From assembly GCA_003511885.1 (NCBI GenBank), contig DOIX01000342.1, forward strand, positions 29,647 through 46,521: a stretch of DNA of 16,875 nt. Reading direction: 5' to 3'. Shown here in pieces: positions 2,530-16,752 of this stretch. The notes under the pieces are model-generated. The model was not told the DNA's origin and searched no databases. It worked only from the letters and a program-made list of their open reading frames with translations. This DNA comes from Cyanobacteria bacterium UBA11153 (GTDB taxonomy: Bacteria; Cyanobacteriota; Cyanobacteriia; Cyanobacteriales; Coleofasciculaceae). Position 1 is the first letter of the stretch. Every line of letters begins with the position of its first letter. Position numbers and translations under genes: made by a program.

Positions 2530-3099
2530 TTATCTGCCTTGGAGAATTTGAGCCGCAGTTAGTGTCAGATTACCCAAAATCGGAGAAACAATAGTATTAT
2601 CACCTTGATAGACTTTTTCCTCATATAATCCTTCTACCCACTCTAATATTGTCACCTGTTGCAATATCGGATCGACAATCCAATATTCGGCAATGCCTCT
2701 CGCCCCATATTCACTTCTTTTATAGCGATAGTCGCGCTTTTCTTGATTGGGGCTGACTACTTCTACTACTAACAAAGGTGGTGGCATATCCATTAAGACA
2801 ATGGAGCGAGATGCTCCTTCCAAAACTACAGCCAACTCTTCAGATAATATCATCAAATCTGGCACTCGCACCGAAGCCTGCACACCACTTACTACCACCT
2901 CAGTTTTCATTGTGAGTCGGTGCGAAGGAATTCCCAACTGAAGAAAATAGGCAAACAAAAATGTGGCAATTCGACGATTGATTTCGCTTTCAGCAGGCAT
3001 TTTGATAAGTTCTCCGTTTTCTAATTCATAACTGGTATCAGTGCCATCGTTGTAGTTGAGAAATTCTGCTAGTGTCATTTTCACTGCTGTAACTGTCAT
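2530..3099 (-). CDS. Uma2 family putative endonuclease, tandem duplicate (downstream copy)
   Basis: 189 residues. The N-terminal element MTLAEFLNYNDGTDTSYELENGELIKMP, the acidic residue in VPDLMIL (D81) and VVEVVSPNQEKRDYRYKRSEY (E113, D123, K127) are the Uma2 core in the right order. The usual SPST signature is SPNQ here. By my alignment it shares 158 of 189 residues (about 84%) with the gene just upstream on the same strand (3141-3710). Residues 93-141 are identical, while 23 of the 31 differences fall between 36 and 92. GAGGAGG (complement of 3107-3113) seven bases before the ATG is a strong ribosome binding site. The 41-bp gap suggests co-transcription with its twin. Confidence 0.88.
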   Translation of the reverse strand: MTVTAVKMTLAEFLNYNDGTDTSYELENGELIKMPAESEINRRIATFLFAYFLQLGIPSHRLTMKTEVVVSGVQASVRVPDLMILSEELAVVLEGASRSIVLMDMPPPLLVVEVVSPNQEKRDYRYKRSEYGARGIAEYWIVDPILQQVTILEWVEGLYEEKVYQGDNTIVSPILGNLTLTAAQILQGR

Positions 3100-3140: not shown

Positions 3141-3710
3141 CTATCTGCTTTGGAGAAGTTGAGCCACAGTTAGTGTCAGATTACCTAATATTGGAGAAAC
3201 AATAGTATTATCCCCTTTATATACCTTTTCTTCATATAATCCTTCTACCCACTCTAATACCGTCACCTGTTGCAATATTGGATCAATAATCCAATATTCG
3301 GCAATTCCCCTTGCCCCATATTCACTTCTTTTATATCGATAATCTCGCTTTTCTTGATTGGGGCTGACTACTTCTACTACTAACAATGGTGGTGGCATAT
3401 CCATTAATACAATCGAGCGAGATGCTCCTTCTAAAGCCACAGCTAACTCTTCAGATAAGACTACCAAATCCGGTAAACGAACAGATGCACTAGCACTGCT
3501 GACAGCTAACTCTATACCAATTCTCAGCCGATAGCTGGGAATTCCCAGTTGGCTCAAATATATGAGCAGAAACATAGCAATTCTCTGATTTAGATCGCTT
3601 TCAGATGGCATTTTAATAAGTTCCCCATTTTCTAATTCATACTTGGTATCAGTACCATCGTCGTAGTTGAGAAATTCTGCCAGGGTCATTTTCACTGCTG
3701 TCACAGTCAT
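3141..3710 (-). CDS. Uma2 family putative endonuclease, tandem duplicate (upstream copy)
   Basis: 189 residues, the first gene of the tandem pair. It has the same Uma2 core (D81 in LPDLVVL, E113 in VVEVVSP, D123, K127 and the AEYWIIDP strand) as its neighbour and the same SPNQ variant. The ATG at 3710 is preceded by GGGAG eight bases upstream. The two copies keep near-identical catalytic and C-terminal parts but differ in the helix and strand region 36-92. That fits either relaxed or diversifying change in one segment, or gene conversion that homogenised the rest. Substrate and role are unknown. Confidence 0.88.
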   Translation of the reverse strand: MTVTAVKMTLAEFLNYDDGTDTKYELENGELIKMPSESDLNQRIAMFLLIYLSQLGIPSYRLRIGIELAVSSASASVRLPDLVVLSEELAVALEGASRSIVLMDMPPPLLVVEVVSPNQEKRDYRYKRSEYGARGIAEYWIIDPILQQVTVLEWVEGLYEEKVYKGDNTIVSPILGNLTLTVAQLLQSR

Positions 3711-4094: not shown

Positions 4095-4676
4095 TTAATT
4101 GTTTGCAGCTTCTACTTCAAACTCCACTTGTCGATACAAATCGCTAATTGCAATTTCCACATTCACCGATTCTAGCTGCAAGCTTTCACCCAAACCATAC
4201 TCCGATAGCACCCATTTCCCCTGTTGGTTACGCCGAAATACTTCCACTCCTGGTTGTTCAACTTGGACTAACACGTATTCTTGCAGTGTGGCAAATCTTC
4301 GGTATTTAGCAAACTTTGTACCTCTATCAATTGCTTCAGTAGAAGGCGATAAAACTTCGATAATTAAGCAGGGAAATTGCACTAATTGTGGATCTCGATC
4401 CCGTTCATCGCAAGTCACTACTACATCCGGATAAAAATACTTTCGTCCCGGTTCCACCTGCGCTTTTACATCTACAATGTAAACTTCACAGGGGCAATCG
4501 GCAAGGGCATCATCTAGAAGCTTGAAGAAATTTCCGGAAACTCGATTGTGATTGCGGGTTCCGCCACTCATAGCTACTACTTCGCCATCCCAAAATTCGT
4601 AGCGTTGCTGTTGGGTGGGTTCCCACGCCAGGTATTCCTCTGCTGTCATTAATAAGCGATCTGATAAAGCAACCAT
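4095..4676 (-). CDS. Uma2 family (DUF820) putative endonuclease, copy 4
   Basis: 193 residues. Family motifs in order: MTAEEYLAWEPTQQQRYEFWDGE (10-32), GGTRNHNRVSGN with the conserved His (43), D84 in YFYPDVVVTCD, then LIIEVLSPSTEAIDRGTKFAKYR (E107, D117, K121). This is the canonical Uma2 version with an intact SPST signature, closer in motif style to the 1770 gene than to the tandem pair. The start is the ATG at 4676, followed by VALSDRLLMT. No strong ribosome binding site is visible before it. An upstream in-register hairpin (CTATC/GATAG near 4698-4714) could mark its leader. Confidence 0.88.
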   Translation of the reverse strand: MVALSDRLLMTAEEYLAWEPTQQQRYEFWDGEVVAMSGGTRNHNRVSGNFFKLLDDALADCPCEVYIVDVKAQVEPGRKYFYPDVVVTCDERDRDPQLVQFPCLIIEVLSPSTEAIDRGTKFAKYRRFATLQEYVLVQVEQPGVEVFRRNQQGKWVLSEYGLGESLQLESVNVEIAISDLYRQVEFEVEAANN

Positions 4677-4828: not shown

Positions 4829-6529
4829 TCAAGCATCTGTGATGTCTTCTATTAAAACGCGATCGCGCGGTACTCGAAAAACTTTAAGAGTTGAGAGATT
4901 TCCCTGTGATGTGGTAATATCACTAACGGCTTTCAAGGTGCAAGTTAATGCTTTTGGTGTTACTTCAACTAGGTTGTAACCGTGGGCTGTTGAGTTAAAG
5001 TATTGAATGTGGGGATTGCTATCTTTGAGCATTTGAGTCATCATTTCAATTGGTGGATGACTTAACTCTTGTGGACTTGAACTATGAGTCTCTGCAAAGT
5101 TGGAGGAAGCAGTCGATCCCACGAGAAACTCTACTCCGATTGGCTCATCTTCTGGATCGTCAAAGTTTATTTTTTGATAGCCAGTAACAAAGGTGTGGAA
5201 ATCTCCGGTAATGGTGACAAAGTTTTTCACCCCAGCTTCTTTGATGGTGCTAAATAATAAAGATCTCTCCGCCGGATAACCATCCCATTGATCTAAGGAT
5301 ACAAATAACTCTGGGCTTGATTCTCCTACAAGCTTCGTAGCAAATTCTGATAAGTATTTCAGTTGCATAGTCATAACTTCGTTCCCCCAGATTTTCCAGG
5401 TGGCAGGAGAATTGATGATTGTATCGCAGAACCACTGTCGTTGTGCATTGCCCAGCATACTTCGGTTTGGAGCCTTCCGTTCCACAGAGTCTGCTACCAT
5501 ATATCGCTGTTGTTTCAGATATTGTTGTTGCTGTGCCTCAAGATTGTCATAAGGAGGACCATCCCGATAGAGGCGTTGATCCGTCATGATTAGTTCTAGC
5601 AGATTGCCAATTTTGAAGGTGCGATAGATTTGCAGGGCACTGAGGGGATGTTTGTCAGGCTCGAAAGTAATCCTGGTGGGGGTGTATTCAGCCCATGCCT
5701 GACTTGCCCACTGCCGAAGCTTTGCTTTATAGAATGGAACTTGTTCTGGGGTATTTGTACCGAAGTTATCACCAGCAAATTCATGATCGTCCCAAATACT
5801 GATGAAGGCAAAATTTTCCCGCAGCTTTTGTAAATCGCGATCGCTTTTGTAGGTTTGATAGAGGAATCGATAGTCTTGAAGGCTACTTGCAACTGCTTGA
5901 CCGCTAGGTAGCTGAATCGGACGGATACCACGTTGGAAGCTGGGGTCTCCCACGCTCTCATATATATAATCGCCCAAAAATACGACAAAATCAATATCTT
6001 CTTCTGCTAAAAAGCGATGGCTGTTGTAGTAGCCGTTAGTGTAATCTTGGCAACTGACGTAAGCAAAGCGAACTTTATTTACCTCCATGTTAGGATCGGG
6101 TAAAGTCTTAAAACGACCTCTTCTACTGGCTGTTCCTTGGCAAATGAATCGATAGTAGTAGGTGGTAAAAGGTTGGAGACGGGGGGAATCAACATGAACT
6201 TTAACAGTGTAATCCTTCGAGCCATCTGTTTGTGCTACACCGCGTAATGCGATCTCGTTAAACTCAGAATCTCTAGCAATCTCAAAACCTAATTCAATTA
6301 AACCTTGTTGTGGCGAAACTACGCGAGTCCAAAGAGTAATTCCCTGGGGCTGGGGATCTCCTGATGCCACACTCTGTGGAAAAATAGATGAGCTAGCAGT
6401 GGCAGATTTTACAGCAAATAACTCTTTAATTTTTTCTTCACTTCTGACCAATTGTTTTGGCAGTTTATCATCAGGCCAAATGATAAAACCCATTGCTAGC
6501 GAGTAATTGAGAAATGTTCGTCTGTCCAT
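4829..6529 (-). CDS. phoD: PhoD-like alkaline phosphatase/phosphodiesterase
   Basis: A 566-residue PhoD-family metallophosphoesterase. PhoD enzymes hydrolyse phosphomono- and diesters outside the cytoplasm and carry iron and calcium in the active site. The N-terminal PhoD domain begins at ASGDPQPQGITLWTRV (55-70). The catalytic domain shows YVSCQDYTNGYYN (metal-ligand Cys160), FLGDYIYE (D187), SIWDDHEFAGDN (244-255), MLGNAQRQWF and TGDFHTF. The start RRTFLNYSLAMGFIIW has the twin arginines of a Tat signal, but its hydrophobic stretch is short and no clear cleavage motif follows, so it may be a membrane anchor or a weak signal. TATAAT (complement of 6541-6546) lies close upstream. I see no convincing Pho-box array. 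It stands alone, 282 bp from the transporter gene. Confidence 0.9.
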   Translation of the reverse strand: MDRRTFLNYSLAMGFIIWPDDKLPKQLVRSEEKIKELFAVKSATASSSIFPQSVASGDPQPQGITLWTRVVSPQQGLIELGFEIARDSEFNEIALRGVAQTDGSKDYTVKVHVDSPRLQPFTTYYYRFICQGTASRRGRFKTLPDPNMEVNKVRFAYVSCQDYTNGYYNSHRFLAEEDIDFVVFLGDYIYESVGDPSFQRGIRPIQLPSGQAVASSLQDYRFLYQTYKSDRDLQKLRENFAFISIWDDHEFAGDNFGTNTPEQVPFYKAKLRQWASQAWAEYTPTRITFEPDKHPLSALQIYRTFKIGNLLELIMTDQRLYRDGPPYDNLEAQQQQYLKQQRYMVADSVERKAPNRSMLGNAQRQWFCDTIINSPATWKIWGNEVMTMQLKYLSEFATKLVGESSPELFVSLDQWDGYPAERSLLFSTIKEAGVKNFVTITGDFHTFVTGYQKINFDDPEDEPIGVEFLVGSTASSNFAETHSSSPQELSHPPIEMMTQMLKDSNPHIQYFNSTAHGYNLVEVTPKALTCTLKAVSDITTSQGNLSTLKVFRVPRDRVLIEDITDA

Positions 6530-6811: not shown

Positions 6812-7828
6812 TCAGAAACTTGGCTCCATATCATTGACATCTTTTGGTTCGATTTGTTCAGAATTAGACTTTTTCTCCGCGCCTTTACCAGTTTTTCCTA
6901 GATAAATACCTACCATGATTATGGCAAAACCCAACCAATTCACCAGACTTAATTGCTCTGAGAAAAGTATCCAAGCCAGAGTTGCCGCAATCACTGGATC
7001 CAGTAAATATACCATCAGGACGAAGGTGGAGGAAAATCTTTTCAAGCTATACACTGTTAATCCGTGACCTAATGCCTCACAAACAACAGCTAGGGAAAAT
7101 ACGATTAACCACCCTGACAAAGAACTTGGGAATAATTGATTTTCAGAAGTCAGGACGAGGGGTAATGTTAATATAGTCCCAACAGAACACCTCCACATTA
7201 GCACTGTTTCTACTGAAAATTTACTGCGAAGATATTCCAGGATTAGGTAAGTAGCTGCATATAATATAGCACACCCAAGAGCAGCCAAATCGCCAATCAG
7301 ACCATGCTTAGATACTATTAGGTCATCCAATCCTAAAACTATTGCTCCTAGTATTGCCACTACCAATCCGATCAAAAATCTACGGTCAAAAATCTGCTTG
7401 AATAATAGCCATGCCCCCAAGGTAGTGAAGACTGGACTTAAACCACCAATTACGTTAGCATTAGCTACGCTAGTTTCAGTTAAAGACCAAGTCCAAAGGA
7501 GACGACCTACCATATAAGCTACAGATGCTCCCAGCAAAAGTCCATAGTCACGAGTTTCGTTGCGTTTCTTTAGGATGAATTGCTCGTCTGATTGTTGAAT
7601 GCGTAATTGATAGAAACCATTCCACAATCCAAATACTATAGCAGCGATCCAAGAGCGATTGAATAGTGTTTCATTGACACTCATTTCCCTCAAGGAAAAT
7701 TTCACCAATATCCCTGTTAAAGCCAAAGCAAACAAGGCTATAATTAACAAGACAAATGGGATAACTTCTGCTGGGATTGATGTGTGTTTTGTGTGATTGT
7801 CTAGTCCTACTTCTTTGTTAGGGATCAT
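6812..7828 (-). CDS. EamA/DMT-superfamily membrane transporter
   Basis: A 338-residue integral membrane protein with about ten hydrophobic helices arranged as two EamA halves (roughly residues 22-165 and 178-312), the drug/metabolite transporter layout. Members typically export or exchange small metabolites such as amino acids, sugars, nucleotide sugars or amines. The first half ends with ANANVIGGLSPVFTTLGAWLLFKQ, whose conserved proline and loop match the EamA repeat. The second half has LMVYLLDPVIAATLAWILFSEQLS at the equivalent place. N- and C-termini are charged and cytosolic-looking. The ATG at 7828 has only a weak ribosome binding site. It is the last gene of the six-gene minus-strand run, 93 bp after the glucokinase-like gene, and could export the product. 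Confidence 0.88.
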   Translation of the reverse strand: MIPNKEVGLDNHTKHTSIPAEVIPFVLLIIALFALALTGILVKFSLREMSVNETLFNRSWIAAIVFGLWNGFYQLRIQQSDEQFILKKRNETRDYGLLLGASVAYMVGRLLWTWSLTETSVANANVIGGLSPVFTTLGAWLLFKQIFDRRFLIGLVVAILGAIVLGLDDLIVSKHGLIGDLAALGCAILYAATYLILEYLRSKFSVETVLMWRCSVGTILTLPLVLTSENQLFPSSLSGWLIVFSLAVVCEALGHGLTVYSLKRFSSTFVLMVYLLDPVIAATLAWILFSEQLSLVNWLGFAIIMVGIYLGKTGKGAEKKSNSEQIEPKDVNDMEPSF

Positions 7829-7872
7829 TGAGGTTTGTCTCTCTAGCAGAAGGCGTGAATGATTCCGTTACC

Positions 7873-7910
7873 ATTGGTGTTTAATGACATTGGTGTTTAA
7901 TGACACCAAT
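7873..7910. repeat. Tandem 16-bp repeat with alternative hairpins between kinase and transporter genes
   Basis: ATTGGTGTTTAATGAC occurs twice in exact tandem (7873-7888 and 7889-7904), followed by ACCAAT. ATTGGTGT (7889-7896, and also 7873-7880) is complementary to ACACCAAT (7903-7910). The single left arm in the minus-strand RNA can therefore pair with either of two right arms. It lies in the 93-bp gap just after the kinase stop codon and might be a terminator, attenuator or processing site. Confidence 0.6.
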
Positions 7911-7921
7911 ATATGGCTTAT

Positions 7922-8899
7922 TTAATGCCTGGAAATAAGCCTTTTGGCATACCAAGCTGCTCCCTGCAAAGATGTGTCTTCATTGAGAATTACATAGACA
8001 GGAATATCAGTTAAAAACTCGCGCATTTTGTCCTTATTTACAAAATTTTCGACGAAGCTGGGATCTCGTAAACTGTTGAGAATTTTGGGAGCCATTCCGC
8101 CCCCAATGTAAATACCCCCTGTACTGAAATACTTGACAGCAGCATTGCCACATTCTGCTGCCAAAATGGATATAAACATTTCCATTGCTTTGACGGATAT
8201 CTGACAGCTACCCTCTTGAGCAGCTTTATTAATCAATGCTGCCTTATCTCCTGTCTCCATTTCTTCTAACAGCGATTTGGGACTTTCACCTAAACCGCTG
8301 TCGCGGAGAAAATCATAAATTTGCACTAAACCCTGCCCGCCTAAAATGACTTCATAGCTGACACGTTTGTATTGCTTTTGGGTGTAACGAATCAGTTCCC
8401 ACTGTAGTTCATCAAACGGACCAAAGTCAGCGTGTCCACCTTCCGTACCTAGTGCGTGAATGTTACCCGCCACCTCTACAAGAATAGCTTCTCCCACGCT
8501 AGTCCCAACTGCGACAACCGCCCGATTGCCCCCTGCTATCTTGCTCCCCTCGTTTAATGTAACTAACTCGTCATCCCGCAATGTTTCCAACCCATAAGCA
8601 TTAGATTCTACATCGTTTAGCAAAGCAACGGGGCTATTAGTAACTTCAGACAGTACGGTAGCATCAACTACTTCCCAAGGTACATTAGTTAACTTACATT
8701 TTCCCTCTCTGATTGGACCTGGTAAACCAAAGCAAGCCGTTGTAATCGGATAATTGTAAGTATCCAGGAATTGGCGGACTATATCATTAAAGCTTTGGTA
8801 CTCTTGACTTTTATATACATCCTGAGCTACTACTGAAAGGTTCTCGTCAAGAAGAGCTAATCGGCTATTCGTTGCGCCAATATCACCTGCTAGAATCAT
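7922..8899 (-). CDS. Glucokinase-family sugar kinase (Glk type)
   Basis: 325 residues of the bacterial Glk (group A) glucokinase family, which phosphorylates glucose with ATP at O6. Recognisable parts: phosphate-1 loop AGDIGATNSRLALLD (4-18), LTNVPWEV (70-77), sugar-binding LNDVESNAYG with the catalytic base D96 (94-103), EGGHADFGP (153-161) and GGIYIGGGMAPKIL near the C-terminus. Two deviations stand out: the first loop has GATN instead of GGTN, and the second nucleotide loop reads VGTSVGEA (131-138) where Glk usually has AGTGLG. So the substrate may be a hexose, aminohexose, hexitol or cyclitol rather than glucose itself. CAGGAG five bases upstream supports the ATG at 8899. It sits 159 bp after the MDR gene. 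Confidence 0.85.
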   Translation of the reverse strand: MILAGDIGATNSRLALLDENLSVVAQDVYKSQEYQSFNDIVRQFLDTYNYPITTACFGLPGPIREGKCKLTNVPWEVVDATVLSEVTNSPVALLNDVESNAYGLETLRDDELVTLNEGSKIAGGNRAVVAVGTSVGEAILVEVAGNIHALGTEGGHADFGPFDELQWELIRYTQKQYKRVSYEVILGGQGLVQIYDFLRDSGLGESPKSLLEEMETGDKAALINKAAQEGSCQISVKAMEMFISILAAECGNAAVKYFSTGGIYIGGGMAPKILNSLRDPSFVENFVNKDKMREFLTDIPVYVILNEDTSLQGAAWYAKRLISRH

Positions 8900-9058
8900 G
8901 CTCTCTCCTGTTGGATCTAGTACTGTGGGATTCCCTGAAAATTATCAAACTTTTTTATTGTAACAGTTCTGGGGAAGAGGTAGTTAATATGCGGCTAGGC
9001 TTGGCACTAAATATTATCTATCTGCCAGAATAGTACTGTTTTCTACCTCAGATTGGAA

Positions 9059-10102
9059 CTATTTGGCAAAATCAATGACCAATCCTCGACAATTGGGTTG
9101 TTGAGAGATATCAACTGCATCAGTTGTCAACTTGGAGAATGGAACATAATGAGTAACGATCGGTCGTAAATCGATTTGTTTTGTCGCGATTAGATCGATA
9201 GCTTGGCGAAAATGATTGGGAACATATCGATAGCTACCGTAAATCTTCAGGGAGCGATAATGGATTAAATTGGGATCCCCTGGAAATGTCGTTCCTGGTG
9301 GTGTGCCTCCAAAACCAACCGCTCTCCCACCACACCGCAGTAAAGTCAATGCCTCTTGATAAGTTTCACCACAACCAACTGCTTCGATAACCACATCAGC
9401 ACCATAACCTTGAGTTTCTGCCATCACCACATCTCGTAGAGACTCAACCTTGACATTAACACCACGATATGCACCCAAAGCTAATGCCTGTTGGAGTGAA
9501 TCGTCATGTTTGCCAGCCACAATAATCTTGGTAGCACCTCGCAGTTGCGCTAGCTGGACAAACACCAATCCCACGCTTCCATCTCCAATAATGACAACAG
9601 TATCGGAGAAAGCAATATGCGACAAGTCCATACCTTGAAGTATGCAGGCGAGTGTCTCAGCATAAGCTGCTTCCTCATATTTAATATCTGAGGGCAGTTC
9701 AAAGATACCGCCAACCAGGGGTGCGGGAACGCAGACAAACTCAGCCATTCCCCCCGGTTTTAACCTTGTCGGATGGATACAATGTCCTAATTCTTCAACT
9801 TGACAGTAGAAACACTCTCCACAGGGACGTTCCGGATTAACAGTAACGCGCATTCCCTCAGAAACTGTGGTAACACCAGAACCCACTGCCACCACATCTC
9901 CAGCCAGCATACGCCCAAAAATTTCTGGAGGGTGGAGTTTAGGATGACCAACCAGGATGGCACGGACGTACATTGTAGAAAAGAAACACTTATTTACCTT
10001 GATGAGGACTTCTCCTGGACCGGGATCTGGTCGTTTCACTTGCTCTAATCTAAAGTTTTCACGACCAGGACCGTACCATACTGCAGCACTCATGGTTGTC
10101 AT
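9059..10102 (-). CDS. MDR-family dehydrogenase lacking catalytic-zinc ligands
   Basis: 347 residues of the medium-chain dehydrogenase/reductase superfamily: GroES-like domain 1-150 and Rossmann domain with IIGDGSVG (171-178). The structural zinc set is complete: C94, C97, C100, C108. The catalytic site is not. Where zinc alcohol and polyol dehydrogenases have C-G-x-C-G-T-D, this protein has C-F-F-S-T-M-Y (39-45), so the metal-binding Cys is Ser42. Where they have G-H-E it has G-R-M (63-65). E-P-L becomes E-T-L (149-151). It is probably a zinc-independent reductase or dehydrogenase, or a non-catalytic partner. The segment after the second Rossmann strand (VAGKHDD) lacks the Asp expected for NAD, hinting at NADP(H). 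It is 53 bp downstream of the HAD gene. Confidence 0.85.
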   Translation of the reverse strand: MTTMSAAVWYGPGRENFRLEQVKRPDPGPGEVLIKVNKCFFSTMYVRAILVGHPKLHPPEIFGRMLAGDVVAVGSGVTTVSEGMRVTVNPERPCGECFYCQVEELGHCIHPTRLKPGGMAEFVCVPAPLVGGIFELPSDIKYEEAAYAETLACILQGMDLSHIAFSDTVVIIGDGSVGLVFVQLAQLRGATKIIVAGKHDDSLQQALALGAYRGVNVKVESLRDVVMAETQGYGADVVIEAVGCGETYQEALTLLRCGGRAVGFGGTPPGTTFPGDPNLIHYRSLKIYGSYRYVPNHFRQAIDLIATKQIDLRPIVTHYVPFSKLTTDAVDISQQPNCRGLVIDFAK

Positions 10103-10155
10103 GATTTTAACCTATTTTTTTTCCAAATTATTGATTTTTCCTTGCCTTTGTCAAG

Positions 10156-10824
10156 TTAAGATCCAATTAAAAACTGATTGAGCCAAGACTTGTCAATCTG
10201 TGTGAGTGAATCCAGCTTGATATCTGCGATCGCAAATCGGGGGTCTTCTCCTTCTGCTGGTGCTGGAACCGCAATACATTCCATGGATGCTGCTTTGGCA
10301 CTGATTATGCCACGAATTGAGTCTTCAAAGGCGACACACTTAGTCGGATGGATCCCGAGGCGATGGGCACTAGTGAGATAGACTGCTGGATGAGGTTTGC
10401 CATAAATCTCTGTTTCTCCAGAATTGATCCCATTGAAGGTATCTTGCAAGCCCAGTTTATTTAACACTATTTCAATTAGATACAGAGAAGATGAAGAGGC
10501 TAATGCTAAAGGCAACTTCATCTGGTGACAGAGTTGTACCACTTCCACAGCACCAGGCATTGGCTGTCCGACTGTCATTATCAGTTCACCAACCCGACTG
10601 ATCAGTTTTTCGGCTACTGCAGACTCATTTGGTTCTGTCCAAGGAAATTTTTTATACCAATAATTGACAACCTCTGAAGTACGCAAACCCATTGTTTGAT
10701 GGCACATACTCTCTTGAAGTGGCACTCCTAAATCATTAAATATCTCCAATTCTGCTTGCCACCACAGAGGTTCGCTATCGATCAGCAAACCGTCCATATC
10801 GAAGATGACTGCTCTATCTAACAT
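10156..10824 (-). CDS. HAD-family hydrolase, probable (amino)sugar or hexitol phosphatase
   Basis: 222 residues of HAD subfamily IA, beta-phosphoglucomutase/2-deoxyglucose-6-phosphatase (HxpB/YniC) type. Motif I is VIFDMDGLLIDSEPLWW (6-22) with nucleophile D9 and acid/base D11. Motif II is ALASSSS (107-113), motif III K143 in YGKPHP, and motif IV CVAFEDSIRG with E167/D168 for Mg2+. A helical C1 cap occupies about 20-90. Relatives remove phosphate from hexose-6-phosphates and hexitol phosphates, or act as phosphoglucomutases; the LWW opening favours the HxpB-like phosphatases. In this cluster it would dephosphorylate an aminated sugar-phosphate intermediate (inference). It lies 63 bp after the zinc dehydrogenase gene and 53 bp before the second MDR gene. 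Confidence 0.88.
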   Translation of the reverse strand: MLDRAVIFDMDGLLIDSEPLWWQAELEIFNDLGVPLQESMCHQTMGLRTSEVVNYWYKKFPWTEPNESAVAEKLISRVGELIMTVGQPMPGAVEVVQLCHQMKLPLALASSSSLYLIEIVLNKLGLQDTFNGINSGETEIYGKPHPAVYLTSAHRLGIHPTKCVAFEDSIRGIISAKAASMECIAVPAPAEGEDPRFAIADIKLDSLTQIDKSWLNQFLIGS

Positions 10825-10887
10825 ACTAACTAGTTCTTGAGAAGTTTGATTTTCTTTGATATCGATCGGACTCTTGGATTGACGATC

Positions 10888-11865
10888 TCAAGTAGTAATA
10901 TTCACGAAGGTGCGCGTACCTGCTTGGGGATTCCAACAAGTCAATTCTTCGGGAAGTTGCTCCAGAGAAATACCTCGACCTAACAATTGTGCAAAAAATG
11001 TTTCGTCGCCCTTGATGTATGAAATTGCTTTTCCCATTGTTTCGTCTGTCGCACCAGCGAAGGATGTCACGACAGCTATCTCCCGCATAAATAGTTCGTA
11101 TGGGGAAATAGGTAGAACAATATCTTGCTTGGGTACACCATAAATACAGACTATACCTGCCTTCCGCACTACACCCAGCGCTGTGGCAAGACCGCTTGGC
11201 GTACCGGAACATTCAATTACCAAGTGTCCTCGATCTGCTTCTGCTTCTGCTACTCGTTCAATCCCCAATTTTTCTGCCCAAGGGATCGGCATTTTAGTGA
11301 TATCATATAGCTTAATTTCGCCATCAAATTCAGGGGAATGAGTCAAGAGGTAAGCAATCAGAGCGCCTGATAGTCCACCTCCAATTACTAAAGTTGTTGG
11401 TCGTGAAACTGATAACAAATTGGCAGCAGCGATAATTCTTCCTACTCCCCTCACCGCACAACTTAAAGGCTCAATTAAGACTCCCAATGCCGGATTACTG
11501 AAGTCAAAGTGGTGTAAAGATTGTTTGGGTACGCGCATCTTTTCGGCATATCCCCCATCCTGGTTAACACCTAATTCCTGTAAATTCTGGCAGTGACTAG
11601 TGAGTCCTTCTTGGCAATAGCTACATTTACCGCAGGAAATCTCGTTATTTAAGGCAAAATAGCCTGATTCGTTAGGGATTTTACAAACTACTTCATGACC
11701 GAGAATACGTTCGCAGTCTAAACCTGCGGCTGTCAGTTGTTGGTCTGTTTTACAGACTCCAACAAATTCTACATCTGCGATGACTTCTCCCTCTTGAGGT
11801 AGAGTTGGTGGGATGACATCACGAATCTCTACTTGGTTTTTTCCGTATAAAACTGCGGCTTTCAT
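10888..11865 (-). CDS. Zinc-dependent MDR dehydrogenase (polyol/alcohol dehydrogenase-like)
   Basis: 325 residues, MDR superfamily with both zinc sites intact. Catalytic ligands are C38 in VGVCKTDQQ and H57/E58 in LGHEV; structural cysteines are C78, C81, C84, C92. The LIEPLSCAVRGV segment (130-141) carries the conserved E-P-L. The Rossmann fold begins at VIGGGLSGAL (160-169). It is short for the family (340-350 is usual), with a compact lobe after GHE (CKIPNESGYFALN). Closest by pattern are threonine 3-dehydrogenase, sorbitol dehydrogenase and 2-deoxy-scyllo-inosamine dehydrogenase-like enzymes, which oxidise secondary alcohols of polyols or aminocyclitols. GutB1, the azasugar-pathway dehydrogenase, is of this broad type. 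It follows the aminotransferase gene after 118 bp that contain a hairpin element. Confidence 0.87.
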   Translation of the reverse strand: MKAAVLYGKNQVEIRDVIPPTLPQEGEVIADVEFVGVCKTDQQLTAAGLDCERILGHEVVCKIPNESGYFALNNEISCGKCSYCQEGLTSHCQNLQELGVNQDGGYAEKMRVPKQSLHHFDFSNPALGVLIEPLSCAVRGVGRIIAAANLLSVSRPTTLVIGGGLSGALIAYLLTHSPEFDGEIKLYDITKMPIPWAEKLGIERVAEAEADRGHLVIECSGTPSGLATALGVVRKAGIVCIYGVPKQDIVLPISPYELFMREIAVVTSFAGATDETMGKAISYIKGDETFFAQLLGRGISLEQLPEELTCWNPQAGTRTFVNITT

Positions 11866-11911
11866 TACACCGATACCTGTTGGCTAACAAATGATAACAA
11901 ATACTTGACAC

Positions 11912-11934
11912 TCCCCTGATTAGAAGTCAGGGGA
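11912..11934. repeat. Stem-loop resembling an IS200/IS605-type end, no transposase
   Basis: TCCCCTGA and TCAGGGGA form a perfect 8-bp stem around the loop TTAGAAG. The context, TTGACAC just before and ATTCC just after, resembles the subterminal hairpins I remember from cyanobacterial IS200/IS605-family elements, but no transposase gene is present. It lies between the aminotransferase and zinc dehydrogenase genes and could also act as an intra-operon attenuator or processing site. Confidence 0.4.
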
Positions 11935-11983
11935 TTCCTAATACATCACGGCCTTAATATCCTGATTGATTGGGTACATTTCC

Positions 11984-13432
11984 CTATCCCAATGTGATTG
12001 GGAAAAGTTTTTCCCCAAGTTTTTCCAGTACCAAATCGAGGATACCAATTGTTCGGTCAATTTCTGAATAGGTTATGTCTAAGTAGGGGGCAAACTTGAG
12101 GGTATTGAGGTCATATCCTCCTGTTTGCAACACCATCCGCCAGGTTTTGTCTTCCCATCTGAAGTTATTGTCTTGGGCGATTGTTGCTGCTAGTTGGGCA
12201 GAATTCTTATAGGGTACACCTTTTTCATCTGCAAAAACCATATTTAGGAGGAGTCCTAACCCATCTACACTATAGACAAACCGATGTCTTCCTTGGAGAA
12301 CTTTCAGTTTTTCCAGAAAGTATGCTCCCTTTGCTGGCACCGATATTTCATAATCCTGTCGTAGCATATACCGCCATGATGCTAATGCGGCTGCGGTTCC
12401 GAGTGGGTGATTGGCAAAGTTGCTGTGGGCATGTCCGGGGGTGAATACTTCTGGATGGACTAAATCTTCTCTCGCCCATACTAAACTAACTGGACTCAAA
12501 CCATTGGTAAAGGATTTGCTCAGAGTAATAATATCTGGCACAATGTCAAAATGCTCAAATGCGAACAACTTTCCTGTGCGGTACATGCCAACTTGAATTT
12601 CGTCGGCGATTACGAGAATTCCACGCTGTTGTAGTTCGGGTATAAAATTACGATAAAAATCTTTTGGTGGAATAGTGTAGCCTCTTCCCTGACAAAGTTC
12701 TATGGCAATAGCGCCTATTTCTGAGCTGGTTTGACTGGCTATTCCATAATATTCGTTGGAAAAAGCCTTGTTAATCATTTTGGCGCAGTACAAATTGCAG
12801 GTTTCTCTTTTCTTTTCATAGAAACACTGGGTGCAGTTGGCGAAGGGAAACATAATCGCCTTGTCTGGAAACTCGTTGTAATATTGTCGATATCGGTGGC
12901 TACTGGAAAGATTTAGTGTCCCTAAAGAACGACCGTGGTAACTACCTGTCATGACAGCCACTTTATTCTTGCCCGTATTTTTACGAACTATCTTCATTGC
13001 ATCTTCTACTACCAGGGAACCACCAACATTGAAGGAGACTCGCCCTTTGATTCCAGTCCTTTCATAGATAGCATCAACCACTATTTTAGCTACTAACAAT
13101 TTCTCTGGATGTAAGAAGTCGCCACAAGCTTGGGGAAGGGTGTTGAATTGTTGGAAAACTTCTGATTCTATTTCGGGATTTCGATACCCAAAGTTACAGC
13201 TTGAGTGCCACATTCCCGTATCAATGTAAGTGTTACCTTCGTTGTCGAAAATTAATCCTCCTTCACAACCACTGATGATGATTGGATTCTCCTGATAATG
13301 AACGGTATCTCCCCAGGAGAGATATTCGCGATCTATTTTGCGAAGTTCTTCACTTTCTCCTGCGGATGATATTTCTAATTCTTGAATATTCTCAGGATTA
13401 GAGGTTAAGCATTGCGACGAACTATTTTGCAT
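11984..13432 (-). CDS. Class III PLP-dependent aminotransferase
   Basis: 482 residues of fold-type I class III aminotransferases (GABA/ornithine/lysine-epsilon type), which move amino groups to terminal aldehydes or to ketones. The PLP lysine is K306 in DIITLSKSFTNG, D277 in IADEIQVG holds the pyridine nitrogen, GSYHGRSLGTL (163-173) stacks on the cofactor, and the phosphate loop is GGSLVVEDAMK (137-147), closer to lysine 6-aminotransferase or GABA-AT than to ornithine aminotransferase. A four-cysteine insert, C200-x2-C203-x8-C212-x3-C216, may bind a metal or Fe-S cluster. A polar leader of about 35 residues precedes the conserved fold. It is the first gene of the six-gene run, with the 911-bp gene-free region upstream. 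Class III enzymes start azasugar synthesis (GabT1) and act in aminoglycoside 6'-amination; the substrate here is unknown. Confidence 0.9.
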   Translation of the reverse strand: MQNSSSQCLTSNPENIQELEISSAGESEELRKIDREYLSWGDTVHYQENPIIISGCEGGLIFDNEGNTYIDTGMWHSSCNFGYRNPEIESEVFQQFNTLPQACGDFLHPEKLLVAKIVVDAIYERTGIKGRVSFNVGGSLVVEDAMKIVRKNTGKNKVAVMTGSYHGRSLGTLNLSSSHRYRQYYNEFPDKAIMFPFANCTQCFYEKKRETCNLYCAKMINKAFSNEYYGIASQTSSEIGAIAIELCQGRGYTIPPKDFYRNFIPELQQRGILVIADEIQVGMYRTGKLFAFEHFDIVPDIITLSKSFTNGLSPVSLVWAREDLVHPEVFTPGHAHSNFANHPLGTAAALASWRYMLRQDYEISVPAKGAYFLEKLKVLQGRHRFVYSVDGLGLLLNMVFADEKGVPYKNSAQLAATIAQDNNFRWEDKTWRMVLQTGGYDLNTLKFAPYLDITYSEIDRTIGILDLVLEKLGEKLFPITLG

Positions 13433-13583
13433 AATTTTGGGTTGTGTGACTATATTTAATCTTGCAGCGCAAGTCCTGTCTGATTTAGAATGAACTCGGA
13501 TTATTTAGTTTTGAACCTTACTAGCGGATATTCTCTAGCAACTTCCACTCGAGTTCTGAAGTTGATGCTGCGATATATTACTG

Positions 13584-13603
13584 TTGATTGCGATCGCAAT
13601 CAA
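13584..13603. repeat. Perfect 20-bp palindrome with HIP1 core
   Basis: TTGATTGCGA is followed by its exact reverse complement; the centre is GCGATCGC. It is shorter than, but built like, the 28-bp element at 101-128. Confidence 0.6.
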
Positions 13604-14343: not shown

Positions 14344-15351
14344 ATGCGCATTGAGCAGTTGCAAGCTTTTCTGGCTGTTGCCGAGACAGGGAATTTCGGA
14401 CAAGCCGCCCGCAAGTGCGGGGTGACTCAATCCACTATCAGCCGTCAAATCCAATCCCTGGAAGCCGACTTGGGTTTGCCACTGTTTCATCGCACCTCTC
14501 AAGCTAAGTTAACTTTGGGCGGAGAAAACCTACTACCTCGCGCCCGCAAAATCTGTCAAGAGTGGCATAATGCTACTCAAGAGTTAGCAGATTTAATCGC
14601 GGGGAAGCAACCGGAACTTTGCGTAGCAGCGATTCCGTCAGTTTTTTCTCACTATTTGCCACCCGTATTACAGAAATTTTGCCGCGACTATCCCGACGTA
14701 CAGTTAAGGATAACTTCTTTGGGGAGCGATCGCGCTCTGAAAGTTTTGCGGGATGGTTTGGTGGATATCGCGATTGTGATGAATAATCGCTTTTTAACTG
14801 CTAGTCCAGAAATGGTGGTAGATGTGCTCTACAATGAACCGATTGAACTATTGATGGCGGCAAATCATCCCCTCACTCAATATCAGCAAGTGCCTTGGAG
14901 CGAGTTGGGGAAATACCCGCAAGTTATGTTTAAAGATGGCTATGGGATGCAACGTCTGGTACAAGACTGGTTCTCTCGACAAGGTATTAATCCCCAAATA
15001 GTCATGGAATTAAATGCTTTGGAGGCTTTTCGGGGAGTTATACGTCATGGCGACTTGATTGCTCTATTGCCTCAATCGGCTCTCTTGGAAGCGAGGCTCG
15101 ATCCTACTTTAGCAATCCGCACGATAGCTGGCACTTCTGGACAGCATATCGGAAATCTGTCCGCTGGATTATCGTCTTCTCACCATCGAGTTGCCAATAT
15201 CTCCACATCAGATGTCAGTCTCACCCGTCAAGTGGTATTAGTAACTACTCAGGATCGGCTCCAAATTCCTCCAATTCAGTACTTTTGTCAACTAATTAGG
15301 CAGTTAGATAAGTCTACAATTAATCCTTCATCCTTAGTTTTGAGTGCGTGA
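14344..15351 (+). CDS. ntcB: NtcB, LysR-type activator of nitrate assimilation
   Basis: 335 residues, LysR family. The winged helix-turn-helix is at 1-60 (MRIEQLQAFLAVAETGNFGQ, then CGVTQSTISRQIQSLE as recognition helix). The effector domain follows from about 90 (PELCVAAIPSVFSHYLPPVL). The sequence agrees closely with what I remember of cyanobacterial NtcB, including AGKQPELCVAAIPS, SDRALKVLRDGLVDIAIVMNNRFLT and RQVVLVTTQDRLQIPP. NtcB activates nirA-nrt-narB genes in response to nitrite under NtcA control. A Ser/His-rich segment at about 262-290 looks like an insertion and makes the protein roughly 25 residues longer than usual. The ATG at 14344 has no Shine-Dalgarno; an NtcA box occupies that position. 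No nitrate-assimilation structural genes are in the window. Confidence 0.85.
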   Translation: MRIEQLQAFLAVAETGNFGQAARKCGVTQSTISRQIQSLEADLGLPLFHRTSQAKLTLGGENLLPRARKICQEWHNATQELADLIAGKQPELCVAAIPSVFSHYLPPVLQKFCRDYPDVQLRITSLGSDRALKVLRDGLVDIAIVMNNRFLTASPEMVVDVLYNEPIELLMAANHPLTQYQQVPWSELGKYPQVMFKDGYGMQRLVQDWFSRQGINPQIVMELNALEAFRGVIRHGDLIALLPQSALLEARLDPTLAIRTIAGTSGQHIGNLSAGLSSSHHRVANISTSDVSLTRQVVLVTTQDRLQIPPIQYFCQLIRQLDKSTINPSSLVLSA

Positions 15352-15681
15352 TTGAAGATAGTTTTGACTAATTAGTTTGGAAGGAGAAAAGCTAATGGCT
15401 AAAAGCTAATGGCTAATGGAAGACTTGAAAAAATACTACAGATAAATATATTAGACATCTCCAGAAAATATTGTATTGACTTGTAGTATTTTGTATGGGC
15501 GTTAGCGAGAGCTATGGGTTAGCCTAGCATAAGGGCGACAATTTCACGGAAAAATCAGAAATCTGGATATCCCTTATACTTCGCCCTGCCCCGATAGGTA
15601 AGCCATAATTTATTTGTTGGAGAGGTCTATTGTAGGATCGTACTGACAAGGAGACAAAACAATAAGCAATGAGCGATCTTT
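15352..15681. other. Gene-free region with GCTAATGG repeats
   Basis: 330 bp between ntcB and the TrpD2-like gene. It contains a degenerate tandem repeat of GCTAATGGCTAA units (15391-15418), related in style to the GATTAGC repeat near phoD. AAGGAG at 15648-15653 is a good ribosome binding site but lies 28 bases before the next gene's ATG and 15 before a six-codon frame (15669-15689). No RNA gene recognised. Confidence 0.4.
15391..15418. repeat. Degenerate short tandem repeat of GCTAATGGCTAA type
   Basis: GCTAATGGCTAAAA is followed directly by GCTAATGGCTAATGG. Probably another cyanobacterial STRR-like tract. Confidence 0.6.
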
Positions 15682-16752
15682 ATGAGTAATACATTTAGAG
15701 AATTACTAAAAAAAGTGGGTAGCGGTACTCACACGGGGAAAGATTTAAGTCGGGAAGAAGCAGAAATAGCCACTCGGATGATGCTATTAGGAGAAGCAAC
15801 TCCCGCACAAATTGGTGCATTTTTGATCGCGCACCGAATTAAACGCCCCACTAGTGAAGAATTAGCAGGAATGCTAGATGCTTACGATCAGATTGGTCCT
15901 CAATTGCAATCTTGGGGAATGGGGAAATTACCAGACTCCTCATCCTCCCATCCTATAACAGTTTTGGGTACACCTTATGATGGACGGGATCGCACTGCGC
16001 CTGTCACTATTTTAACGGCGCTGATGCTGGCTGCGGCTGGAGTGCCAGTCTTGATGCACGGAGGGGATCGGATCGCGACTAAATATGGCATTCCTTTAAT
16101 GGAAATTTGGCAGGGATTGGAAGTTGATTTATCTAAATTAAGCCTGGAAAAAGTTCAGTTATTATTGGAAAAAATAGGTTTGGGATTTATCTATTTACCT
16201 CAACATTTTCCTGAAGCAGAGGGGTTAGTTACCTACCGCGATCAAATTGGAAAACGTCCACCTATTGCGACAATGGAGTTAATTTGGTCTCCCTACCTAG
16301 GTGCAATTCATCAGGTGGCAGGTTATGTTCATCCGCCTACGGAAGTGAGGTTTCGAGAGGTATTTAATATGCGAGGCGTGAATAATTTTACTCTGGTGAA
16401 AGGATTAGAAGGAAGTTGTGACTTGCCTTGCGATCGCACTGCGATTATTGCTATCAGTAATCCCAATACTAGTGAAGGTTTTGAGCGTCTCATTCTCCAT
16501 CCCAGCGACTATGGTTTTGCCGCGAAGGAAGTGCCTTTTGAATCAACTAGCCAACTCATTGGACAACTCCAAGCTGTTTTAACAGGTAAATCCTCAGAAT
16601 TACTTAATGCTGCTATTTGGAATGGTGGGTTTTATCTCTGGCGTTGTGGTGTTTGTGAAGATTTACCAACAGGTTTTGCTAAAGCTCAAAACCTCCTCTC
16701 TGGTGGTTATACTGAAAACAAACTAACCGAAATTAAAAATGCGATTGATTAG
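15682..16752 (+). CDS. Anthranilate phosphoribosyltransferase-like protein (TrpD2/YbiB type)
   Basis: 356 residues with the glycosyltransferase family 3 layout: a helical N-terminal domain (1-70, FRELLKKVGSGTHTGKDLSREEAEIATRMMLLGEATPAQIGAFLIAHRIK) and an alpha/beta domain. Residues that bind PRPP and metal in true TrpD are altered. GTGGDG is GTPYDGR (96-102), KHGNR is LMHGGDR (124-130), and the G-x-D-E metal motif is GLEGSCDLP (241-249). This resembles TrpD2 proteins such as E. coli YbiB, a nucleic-acid-binding protein without proven TrpD activity, so it is unlikely to make tryptophan precursors. The first possible in-frame start after a TGA at 15670 is the ATG at 15682. It lies downstream of ntcB on the same strand, 330 bp away; I infer no firm functional link. 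Confidence 0.8.
   Translation: MSNTFRELLKKVGSGTHTGKDLSREEAEIATRMMLLGEATPAQIGAFLIAHRIKRPTSEELAGMLDAYDQIGPQLQSWGMGKLPDSSSSHPITVLGTPYDGRDRTAPVTILTALMLAAAGVPVLMHGGDRIATKYGIPLMEIWQGLEVDLSKLSLEKVQLLLEKIGLGFIYLPQHFPEAEGLVTYRDQIGKRPPIATMELIWSPYLGAIHQVAGYVHPPTEVRFREVFNMRGVNNFTLVKGLEGSCDLPCDRTAIIAISNPNTSEGFERLILHPSDYGFAAKEVPFESTSQLIGQLQAVLTGKSSELLNAAIWNGGFYLWRCGVCEDLPTGFAKAQNLLSGGYTENKLTEIKNAID

What the first reader, a model, noticed from the sequence alone, without database searches (positions are those of the whole stretch)
6812..13432. Candidate small-molecule pathway: aminotransferase, two MDR enzymes, HAD phosphatase, sugar kinase and exporter
Seen: six same-strand genes with gaps of 53-159 bp, in the order class III aminotransferase, zinc MDR dehydrogenase, HxpB-like HAD phosphatase, zinc-less MDR, Glk-family kinase, EamA transporter. 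Known: Bacillus nojirimycin-type azasugar synthesis uses the same three activities (GabT1 class III transaminase on fructose-6-P, Yktc1 phosphatase, GutB1 MDR dehydrogenase), and kanosamine synthesis uses aminotransferase plus HAD phosphatase plus dehydrogenase on glucose-6-P. Inference: the cluster converts a hexose phosphate into an aminated polyol, aminosugar or azasugar and exports it. The phosphatase here is HAD-type instead of IMPase-type, and the extra kinase and MDR would make it a distinct version. An azasugar would be a plausible glycosidase inhibitor against grazers or competitors.
Basis: partly seen in the sequence, partly recalled or inferred. Interest (0 to 1): 0.75.

Follow-up and report, generated by a model that had tools for sequence, protein, structure and literature searches.

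The report
Cyanobacterial azasugar-type pathway with fossil gene
This stretch of a cyanobacterial genome holds an uncommon set of genes that most likely builds and exports a nitrogen-containing sugar mimic, and a decayed scrap beside it suggests that it once stood next to the classical genes for such compounds.

Summary
The six genes are real, open, on one strand and correctly identified. A seventh, a twin-arginine PhoD phosphatase (4829-6529), belongs to the locus. AT-MDR1-HAD-MDR2-GLK recurs at 10 of 23 loci compared (nine cyanobacterial including the window, one Chloroflexota), though the aminotransferase is rare: 3 of 386 cyanobacterial genomes at 80% identity or more. AT and MDR1 also occur fused in one protein.

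The aminotransferase is its own clade, 25-31% identical to GabT1-type enzymes and without the published azasugar motif, so this is not a member of the canonical three-gene azasugar cluster. Yet in related loci that canonical pair stands beside it: Brasilonema has intact gabT1- and yktC1-like genes; Cylindrospermum and genome G030 an intact gabT1 plus a yktC1 scrap; G074 a collapsed pair; the window a 24-codon yktC1 relic (13524-13595; 0 of 400 shuffles score as high). G030 is the mirror image: gabT1, HAD, GLK, EamA, PhoD kept; AT, MDR1, MDR2 gone.

Best reading: an azasugar-type (or aminated-hexitol) pathway in which an unrelated aminotransferase and a HAD phosphatase stand in for GabT1 and YktC1. 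The product is unproven.

The parts
11984..13432 (-). AT: class III PLP aminotransferase of a clade separate from GabT1
   Evidence: PF00202; tree of 51 rows; 25-31% to GabT1-type enzymes
10888..11865 (-). MDR1: MDR dehydrogenase with catalytic and lobe zinc ligands intact
   Evidence: natural fusion AT-MDR1 in P0022
10156..10824 (-). HAD: hexitol phosphatase HxpB-like
   Evidence: NCBIfam NF008087 over cut-off, PF13419
9059..10102 (-). MDR2: MDR enzyme without catalytic zinc ligands (GHE reads GRM in 10 of 10 relatives aligned)
7922..8899 (-). GLK: glucokinase-family kinase of a cluster-specific clade
   Evidence: TIGR00749 over cut-off; 12 of 12 cluster copies apart from 6 of 6 off-cluster copies
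6812..7828 (-). EamA: ten-helix type drug/metabolite exporter family
   Evidence: PF00892, two stretches
4829..6529 (-). PhoD: PhoD-like phosphatase with twin-arginine N-terminus (MDRRTFL), locus-specific clade; next to EamA at 4 of 23 loci
   Evidence: PF09423
13524..13595 (-). Relic of the 3' end of a yktC1-like (PF00459) phosphatase gene, with an in-frame stop
   Evidence: 71% over 24 codons; Smith-Waterman 72 against shuffle mean 33.7, max 51, 0 of 400; DNA 83% over 77 nt to Brasilonema, E 4e-16

Best explanation
The locus is an azasugar-type pathway, i.e. it makes a nitrogen analogue of a hexose or at least an aminated hexitol, and exports it. Proposed steps, all inferred: the dedicated glucokinase-like kinase or central metabolism supplies a hexose phosphate; AT aminates a keto group of a ketose (or oxidised aldose) phosphate; the HxpB-like HAD phosphatase removes the phosphate; zinc MDR1 oxidises an alcohol so that the amine closes onto the new carbonyl; zinc-less MDR2 carries out a second redox step, possibly reduction of the ring imine; EamA exports; PhoD acts outside the cytoplasm. 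AT and HAD would do the jobs done by GabT1 and YktC1 in the canonical pathway. Shown: gene content, co-conservation, fusion of AT with MDR1, co-location with canonical azasugar genes in relatives, and decay of these in the window's lineage. Not shown: any enzyme activity or product.
For: Recurrence of the set at 10 of 23 loci. AT directly followed by MDR1, or fused to it, is the most constant element: MDR1 is found at 21 of 22 loci with an AT. P0022 joins AT (77%) and MDR1 (64%) in one protein; in Pseudanabaena (L013) HAD and MDR2 lie in one open frame. Gabt1-type enzymes with the published motif blocks SGN-FR-FPN-VPxPYCxRC sit next to the cluster in Brasilonema (with an intact PF00459 phosphatase overlapping by 4 bp), in Cylindrospermum and in G030, 57-68% identical to enzymes of actinobacterial loci, 6 of 7 of which also hold the PF00459 phosphatase and an MDR gene. 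The relic in the window. Mirror-image loss in G030, where HAD is the phosphatase left beside an intact gabT1. Kinases in published and refetched azasugar clusters. Seven relatives carry a nucleotidyltransferase whose predicted fold best matches kanamycin/aminoglycoside nucleotidyltransferases, as expected for an aminosugar-like product. Every enzyme Pfam of the three-gene signature as listed in PMC8382821 is present.
Against: AT is only 25-31% identical to GabT1-type enzymes and lacks the motif. Canonical genes are next to the cluster in a minority of loci, and at L010-L014, L018 and L053 no trace was found. At 4 of 22 AT loci there is no HAD (L002, L015-L017). The G030 pattern is a single genome. 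Presence of both aminotransferases in Brasilonema and Cylindrospermum fits two separate products as well as redundancy. The own genome has no gabT1 and no gabT1 relic was detectable (260 of 400 shuffles as high).
Confidence: 0.55

Rival explanations
1. The set makes an open-chain or pyranose aminosugar (kanosamine-like or an aminohexitol) that is never closed into an azasugar; MDR1 makes the keto group on a hexose phosphate, AT aminates it, HAD removes the phosphate.
For: Same enzymes suffice; the kinase supplies hexose phosphate; the nucleotidyltransferase of relatives resembles enzymes that act on aminosugar antibiotics; co-location with gabT1 could mean two compounds made from one locus.
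Against: Linkage with gabT1-yktC1 and mirror-image loss point to the azasugar logic; two MDR genes are more than kanosamine synthesis needs.
Confidence: 0.25
2. C7N-type or 2-deoxystreptamine-type aminocyclitol pathway (validamycin, acarbose, aminoglycosides), which also use class III aminotransferases, kinases and HAD phosphatases.
For: ValM groups with GabT1 at 40% in PMC8382821.
Against: No sugar-phosphate cyclase in the locus; a PF01761 search of the own genome finds one protein only, which by my reading of its sequence is ordinary AroB; the family scan meant to confirm this failed and was not repeated.
Confidence: 0.06
3. A catabolic or salvage pathway for an amino-polyol or amine, with EamA as importer or detoxifier.
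For: MDR, HAD and kinase genes are common in polyol use; in the Chloroflexota locus the set lies beside regulators and a GH2 glycosidase.
Against: No uptake system in the set; relatives carry MFS or EamA transporters and an aminoglycoside-nucleotidyltransferase-like gene; link with gabT1-yktC1.
Confidence: 0.08
4. Adjacency to gabT1-yktC1 is a hitch-hiking accident within a mobile, recombining island, and the six-gene set is functionally unrelated.
For: The loci are rearranged: GLK stands in three different places and fragments of duplicated genes occur.
Against: The AT is rare (3 of 386 at 80% identity or more), gabT1 rarer (1 of 386), and the only gabT1 found in the phylum sample lies in a remnant of this very cluster.
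Confidence: 0.12

Closest known systems
gabT1-yktC1-gutB1 azasugar cluster (Bacillus, Streptomyces; 1-deoxynojirimycin/nojirimycin)
   Same: Three activities: class III aminotransferase, phosphatase, MDR dehydrogenase; transporter; kinases occur in disordered Streptomyces versions (PMC8466323, section 14 read).
   Different: AT is another clade (25-31%), motif absent, phosphatase is HAD instead of PF00459; the canonical pair survives beside the cluster only in relatives, in the window as a relic.
Chitinophaga/Paenibacillus-type azasugar cluster (DAB-1 in C. pinensis)
   Same: Gene order aminotransferase-dehydrogenase-HAD phosphatase; same Pfam families (PMC8382821, parts 1-3 of 5 read); PF07081 is listed there and is a neighbour gene in many of the loci here.
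   Different: Their aminotransferases are 47-48% identical to GabT1 (their Table 1); the window's is not in that range. Their sequences could not be fetched here for a direct comparison.
Galactosyrin (gsn) cluster of Pseudomonas syringae
   Same: MDR oxidase (PF00107), phosphatase, transporter, transfer between strains (PMC11844564, passages read).
   Different: gsn has no aminotransferase; it uses a RibD-like reductase on phosphoribosylamine.
Kanosamine pathway ntdABC (recalled, no call)
   Same: Oxidation, amination and HAD dephosphorylation of a hexose phosphate.
   Different: Other enzyme families for the first two steps.

Membership tests
Azasugar three-gene cluster (PMC8382821) | Aminotransferase at least 40% identical to GabT1 | tested here: not met
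   25-31% to seven actinobacterial motif-bearing enzymes and 28-29% to two cyanobacterial ones. B. velezensis GabT1 itself was not available.
Azasugar three-gene cluster (PMC8382821) | Consensus SGNXFRXXXFPNXXXXXXXLXVPXPYCXRC in the aminotransferase | tested here: not met
   Window AT reads ...SSSHRYRQYYNEFPDKAIMFPFANCTQC; the adjacent gabT1 of relatives has the fixed blocks, with a variable stretch two residues shorter than printed.
Azasugar three-gene cluster (PMC8382821) | Dehydrogenase of PF00107/PF08240/PF16912 nearby | tested here: met
   MDR1 and MDR2
Azasugar three-gene cluster (PMC8382821) | Phosphatase PF00459 or HAD (PF13419, PF12710) nearby | tested here: met
   PF13419 97.9 bits
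Azasugar three-gene cluster (PMC8382821) | Azasugar produced | not testable with these tools
   needs metabolite analysis
C7N / 2-deoxystreptamine aminocyclitol pathway | Dedicated sugar-phosphate cyclase | tested here: not met
   One PF01761 protein in the own genome, 95% complete; sequence read as AroB, not confirmed by a family scan
Hexitol phosphatase HxpB | NCBIfam NF008087 over cut-off | tested here: met
   265.8 vs 191 bits
Housekeeping glucokinase | Groups with off-cluster cyanobacterial Glk | tested here: not met
   34-37% identity and separate clade, 100/99
Canonical zinc MDR alcohol dehydrogenase (MDR2) | Catalytic zinc ligands | tested here: not met
   GHE reads GRM in 10 of 10

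The most novel reading that the evidence does not exclude
An azasugar locus caught in the act of changing its enzymes: an unrelated aminotransferase and a HAD phosphatase displaced gabT1 and yktC1, which decayed repeatedly; the zinc-less MDR2 is the imine reductase that makes the 1-deoxy form, a step for which PMC8382821 says no enzyme has been identified; and the cluster kinase, EamA and twin-arginine PhoD form a phosphate-protected export route (phosphorylated and harmless inside, exported, dephosphorylated outside), like the streptomycin phosphate / StrK scheme (recalled).
Probability: 0.2. Interest if true: 0.8.

Novelty: new variant of a known kind. Interest (0 to 1): 0.6.

Why it matters
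PMC8402191 (passages read) states that no nojirimycin has been reported from cyanobacteria, and my paper searches for azasugar or iminosugar genes in cyanobacteria returned only that work (related searches). A widespread though sporadic cluster of this kind would point to cyanobacterial glycosidase inhibitors, give several named strains to test, and offer a candidate (MDR2) for the unidentified reduction step of deoxynojirimycin-type synthesis. The gabT1/AT swap offers a rare natural comparison of two unrelated aminotransferases within one locus.

Tried and rejected
The azasugar motif as a DNA pattern in 345 Enterobacterales genomes gave 3 places; none lies in an ORF that resembles an aminotransferase: chance matches. 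The same in 394 Actinomycetes gave 7 places in 6 genomes, all in aminotransferases of the GabT1 type; 6 of 7 loci hold AT, PF00459 phosphatase and MDR. Plasmid search with AT: no record at 60% or more; 40% relatives in Rhizobium, Agrobacterium, Bartonella and Xanthomonas stand in other contexts (HAD-IB phosphatase, arginase, GNAT, EamA) and were left as a sister group. A gabT1 relic in the window's 911-bp upstream gap: none. Nucleotidyltransferase c7 in the own genome: none. The LysR and glycosyltransferase genes at 14344-16752 are not kept next to the cluster elsewhere and are not counted as part. In the GLK tree three rows that I had labelled off-cluster (L075, L079, L080) proved to be the cluster copies fetched twice, so the call's own group count (4 changes) is of no meaning; the split stated here is 12 cluster against 6 off-cluster rows. 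In the AT tree the own-genome paralogues and the Nocardia row are long branches and their places are unsure; 22 of 51 rows were in no group.
Full report
What is there. The window is part of a 6.65-Mb, 437-contig cyanobacterial assembly. The phosphatase passes the NCBIfam cut-off for hexitol phosphatase HxpB and the kinase that for glucokinase; the aminotransferase is far below every NCBIfam cut-off shown. MDR1 keeps the zinc ligands, MDR2 has lost the catalytic ones in all 10 copies aligned (ligand positions by general knowledge of the family).

Conservation. A profile scan of genome contigs gave 26 loci; 19 carry the same aminotransferase at 56-84% identity. AT, MDR1, HAD, MDR2 and GLK are all present near full length at 10 of 23: the window, L004 Cylindrospermum sp. 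NIES-4074, L006 Microcoleaceae UBA9251, L010 Moorena, L011 Trichodesmium, L013 Pseudanabaena, L014 an Anaerolineae MAG, L018 Oscillatoria sp. PCC 10802, L052 (G074) and L053 (G172). L012 has the same set with a shortened HAD. EamA is near at 8 of these 10, on the opposite strand or elsewhere at some (L010, L018, L053). A second arrangement, SDR-DUF1349-AT-MDR1-HAD-MFS-TIM barrel, is complete at L003, L008 and L019; L002, L005, L007 and L009 show parts of it, several on short contigs. Three Enterobacterales loci (L015-L017) have AT without HAD, and in L017 AT is broken. MDR1 is found at 21 of 22 loci with an AT; in L017 a 101-aa ORF clusters with it. In L019 AT is interrupted, in L053 a methyltransferase gene lies between AT and MDR1. 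P0022 is one protein made of AT and MDR1, and in L013 HAD and MDR2 share one open frame.

Rarity. In a sample of 386 cyanobacterial genomes the AT query (E up to 1e-120) matched 4: the own genome, two at 80-81% with the full set (L052, L053) and one at 42% (G293) with a HAD-type phosphatase beside it but none of the other window families. So the cluster is sporadic, which fits transfer and loss; no formal transfer test was made.

Membership. The published azasugar signature is aminotransferase + dehydrogenase + phosphatase, with an aminotransferase group around GabT1 and a consensus motif; Bacillus and Streptomyces use PF00459 phosphatases, Chitinophaga and Paenibacillus HAD phosphatases in the order aminotransferase-dehydrogenase-phosphatase (PMC8382821, parts 1-3 of 5 read). 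To test relatedness I took actinobacterial loci by the motif: 7 places in 6 of 394 genomes; 6 of the 7 loci hold a PF00459 phosphatase and an MDR gene. The window AT is 25-31% identical to these enzymes and forms a different clade (51-row tree, 98/100 and 100/100 for the two groups). Pfam content and gene order are met, the aminotransferase criteria are not: it may work like an azasugar cluster, but it is not a member as defined.

The link. A second aminotransferase next to the cluster in L001 (Brasilonema sp. UFV-L1) and L004 turned out to be the GabT1 type, 57-68% identical to the actinobacterial ones and with the motif blocks. In L001 it is followed, with 4 bp overlap, by a PF00459 phosphatase 56-63% identical to those of the actinobacterial loci. 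In L004 36 residues of that phosphatase remain, followed by a duplicated piece of gabT1. In L052 the first 120 residues of gabT1, with a stop, run into the last part of the phosphatase. In L006 a 36-nt match (E 0.001) lies just before GLK. In the window the last 24 codons, with a stop, lie at 13524-13595, about 90 bp upstream of AT: protein search E 1e-4, Smith-Waterman 72 against a shuffle maximum of 51 in 400, DNA 83% over 77 nt to L001, E 4e-16. GabT1 left no detectable trace in the window and there is no intact copy in the own genome. At the other full-set loci (L010, L011, L013, L014, L018, L053) no trace was found.

The mirror image. A search with gabT1 found it in 1 of 386 cyanobacterial genomes, G030. 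There it stands with a 27-residue scrap of the PF00459 phosphatase, GLK (79%), HAD (71%), a scrap of c7, EamA (73%), PhoD (75%) and then MDR3-SDR-DeoC-DUF1349 as in L004; AT, MDR1 and MDR2 are absent. So each of the two decayed versions keeps one aminotransferase, at least one MDR enzyme, HAD, GLK, EamA and PhoD. I take this as the best sign that AT does a job comparable to GabT1 and that HAD can serve as the phosphatase; it rests on one genome for the gabT1-only side.

Kinase, phosphatase, exporter. The cluster kinase is not the ordinary glucokinase: 12 of 12 cluster copies separate from 6 of 6 off-cluster copies, 34-37% identity. Six of 12 genomes searched have a separate complete copy; the own genome has only a fragment besides the cluster copy. 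Kinases of the ROK and APH families stand in the two actinobacterial loci that I examined for this and in published disordered Streptomyces clusters (PMC8466323 section 14). PhoD adjoins EamA at 4 of 23 loci (window, L006, L052, L086) and in the Cylindrospermum genome lies some 17 kb beyond the cluster; these five form a clade, 73-75% identical, against 22-32% for seven other PhoD proteins. The own genome has one other PhoD. Relatives carry c7, intact at 7 loci and as fragments at 2; its model (mean pLDDT 84.8) best matches aminoglycoside nucleotidyltransferase ANT(4') and LinB (E 2e-7, TM 0.54). The window's genome lacks it.

Mechanism. Inferred from the above: hexose phosphate, amination by AT, dephosphorylation by HAD, oxidation by MDR1 with ring closure, a second redox step by MDR2, export by EamA, with GLK supplying substrate or protecting the producer and PhoD acting outside. 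The DNA evidence does not fix the order of steps, the sugar or the ring. Aminocyclitol routes are unlikely for want of a second cyclase.

Verdict. What is new is the aminotransferase clade in an azasugar-type setting, the extended locus, and the repeated decay of the canonical pair beside it.

Noticed in passing
1770-2381, 2530-3099, 3141-3710, 4095-4676: Four ORFs that look to me like Uma2-type (DUF820) proteins (family recalled, not scanned); two of them (2530-3099 and 3141-3710) are tandem near-copies.
   Followed up: no
L019 10684-11898: A 404-aa ORF on the opposite strand interrupts AT/MDR1 in Microseira wollei, probably an insertion element.
   Followed up: no
L017 9929-11637: In Candidatus Sodalis endolongispinus the AT is split over two frames and MDR1 is a fragment: decay in an insect symbiont.
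   Followed up: partly
L043, L044, L045: A sister aminotransferase (about 40%) on Rhizobium, Agrobacterium, Bartonella and Xanthomonas plasmids; in Agrobacterium and Xanthomonas with HAD-IB phosphatase, arginase-family, GNAT and paired small EamA genes: another small-molecule cluster not identified here.
   Followed up: partly
L053 7733-9064: In genome G172 a 444-aa protein with a methyltransferase domain stands between MDR1 and AT, and a further HAD-like protein upstream, suggesting tailoring.
   Followed up: no
L004 14186-14365 and L006 9615-9966: Fragments of duplicated GLK and HAD genes show repeated rearrangement inside the cluster.
   Followed up: partly
G000:C40:25252-25518: The own genome's only other glucokinase match is a short stretch with a stop; the cluster kinase may be its only complete glucokinase-family enzyme.
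   Followed up: partly
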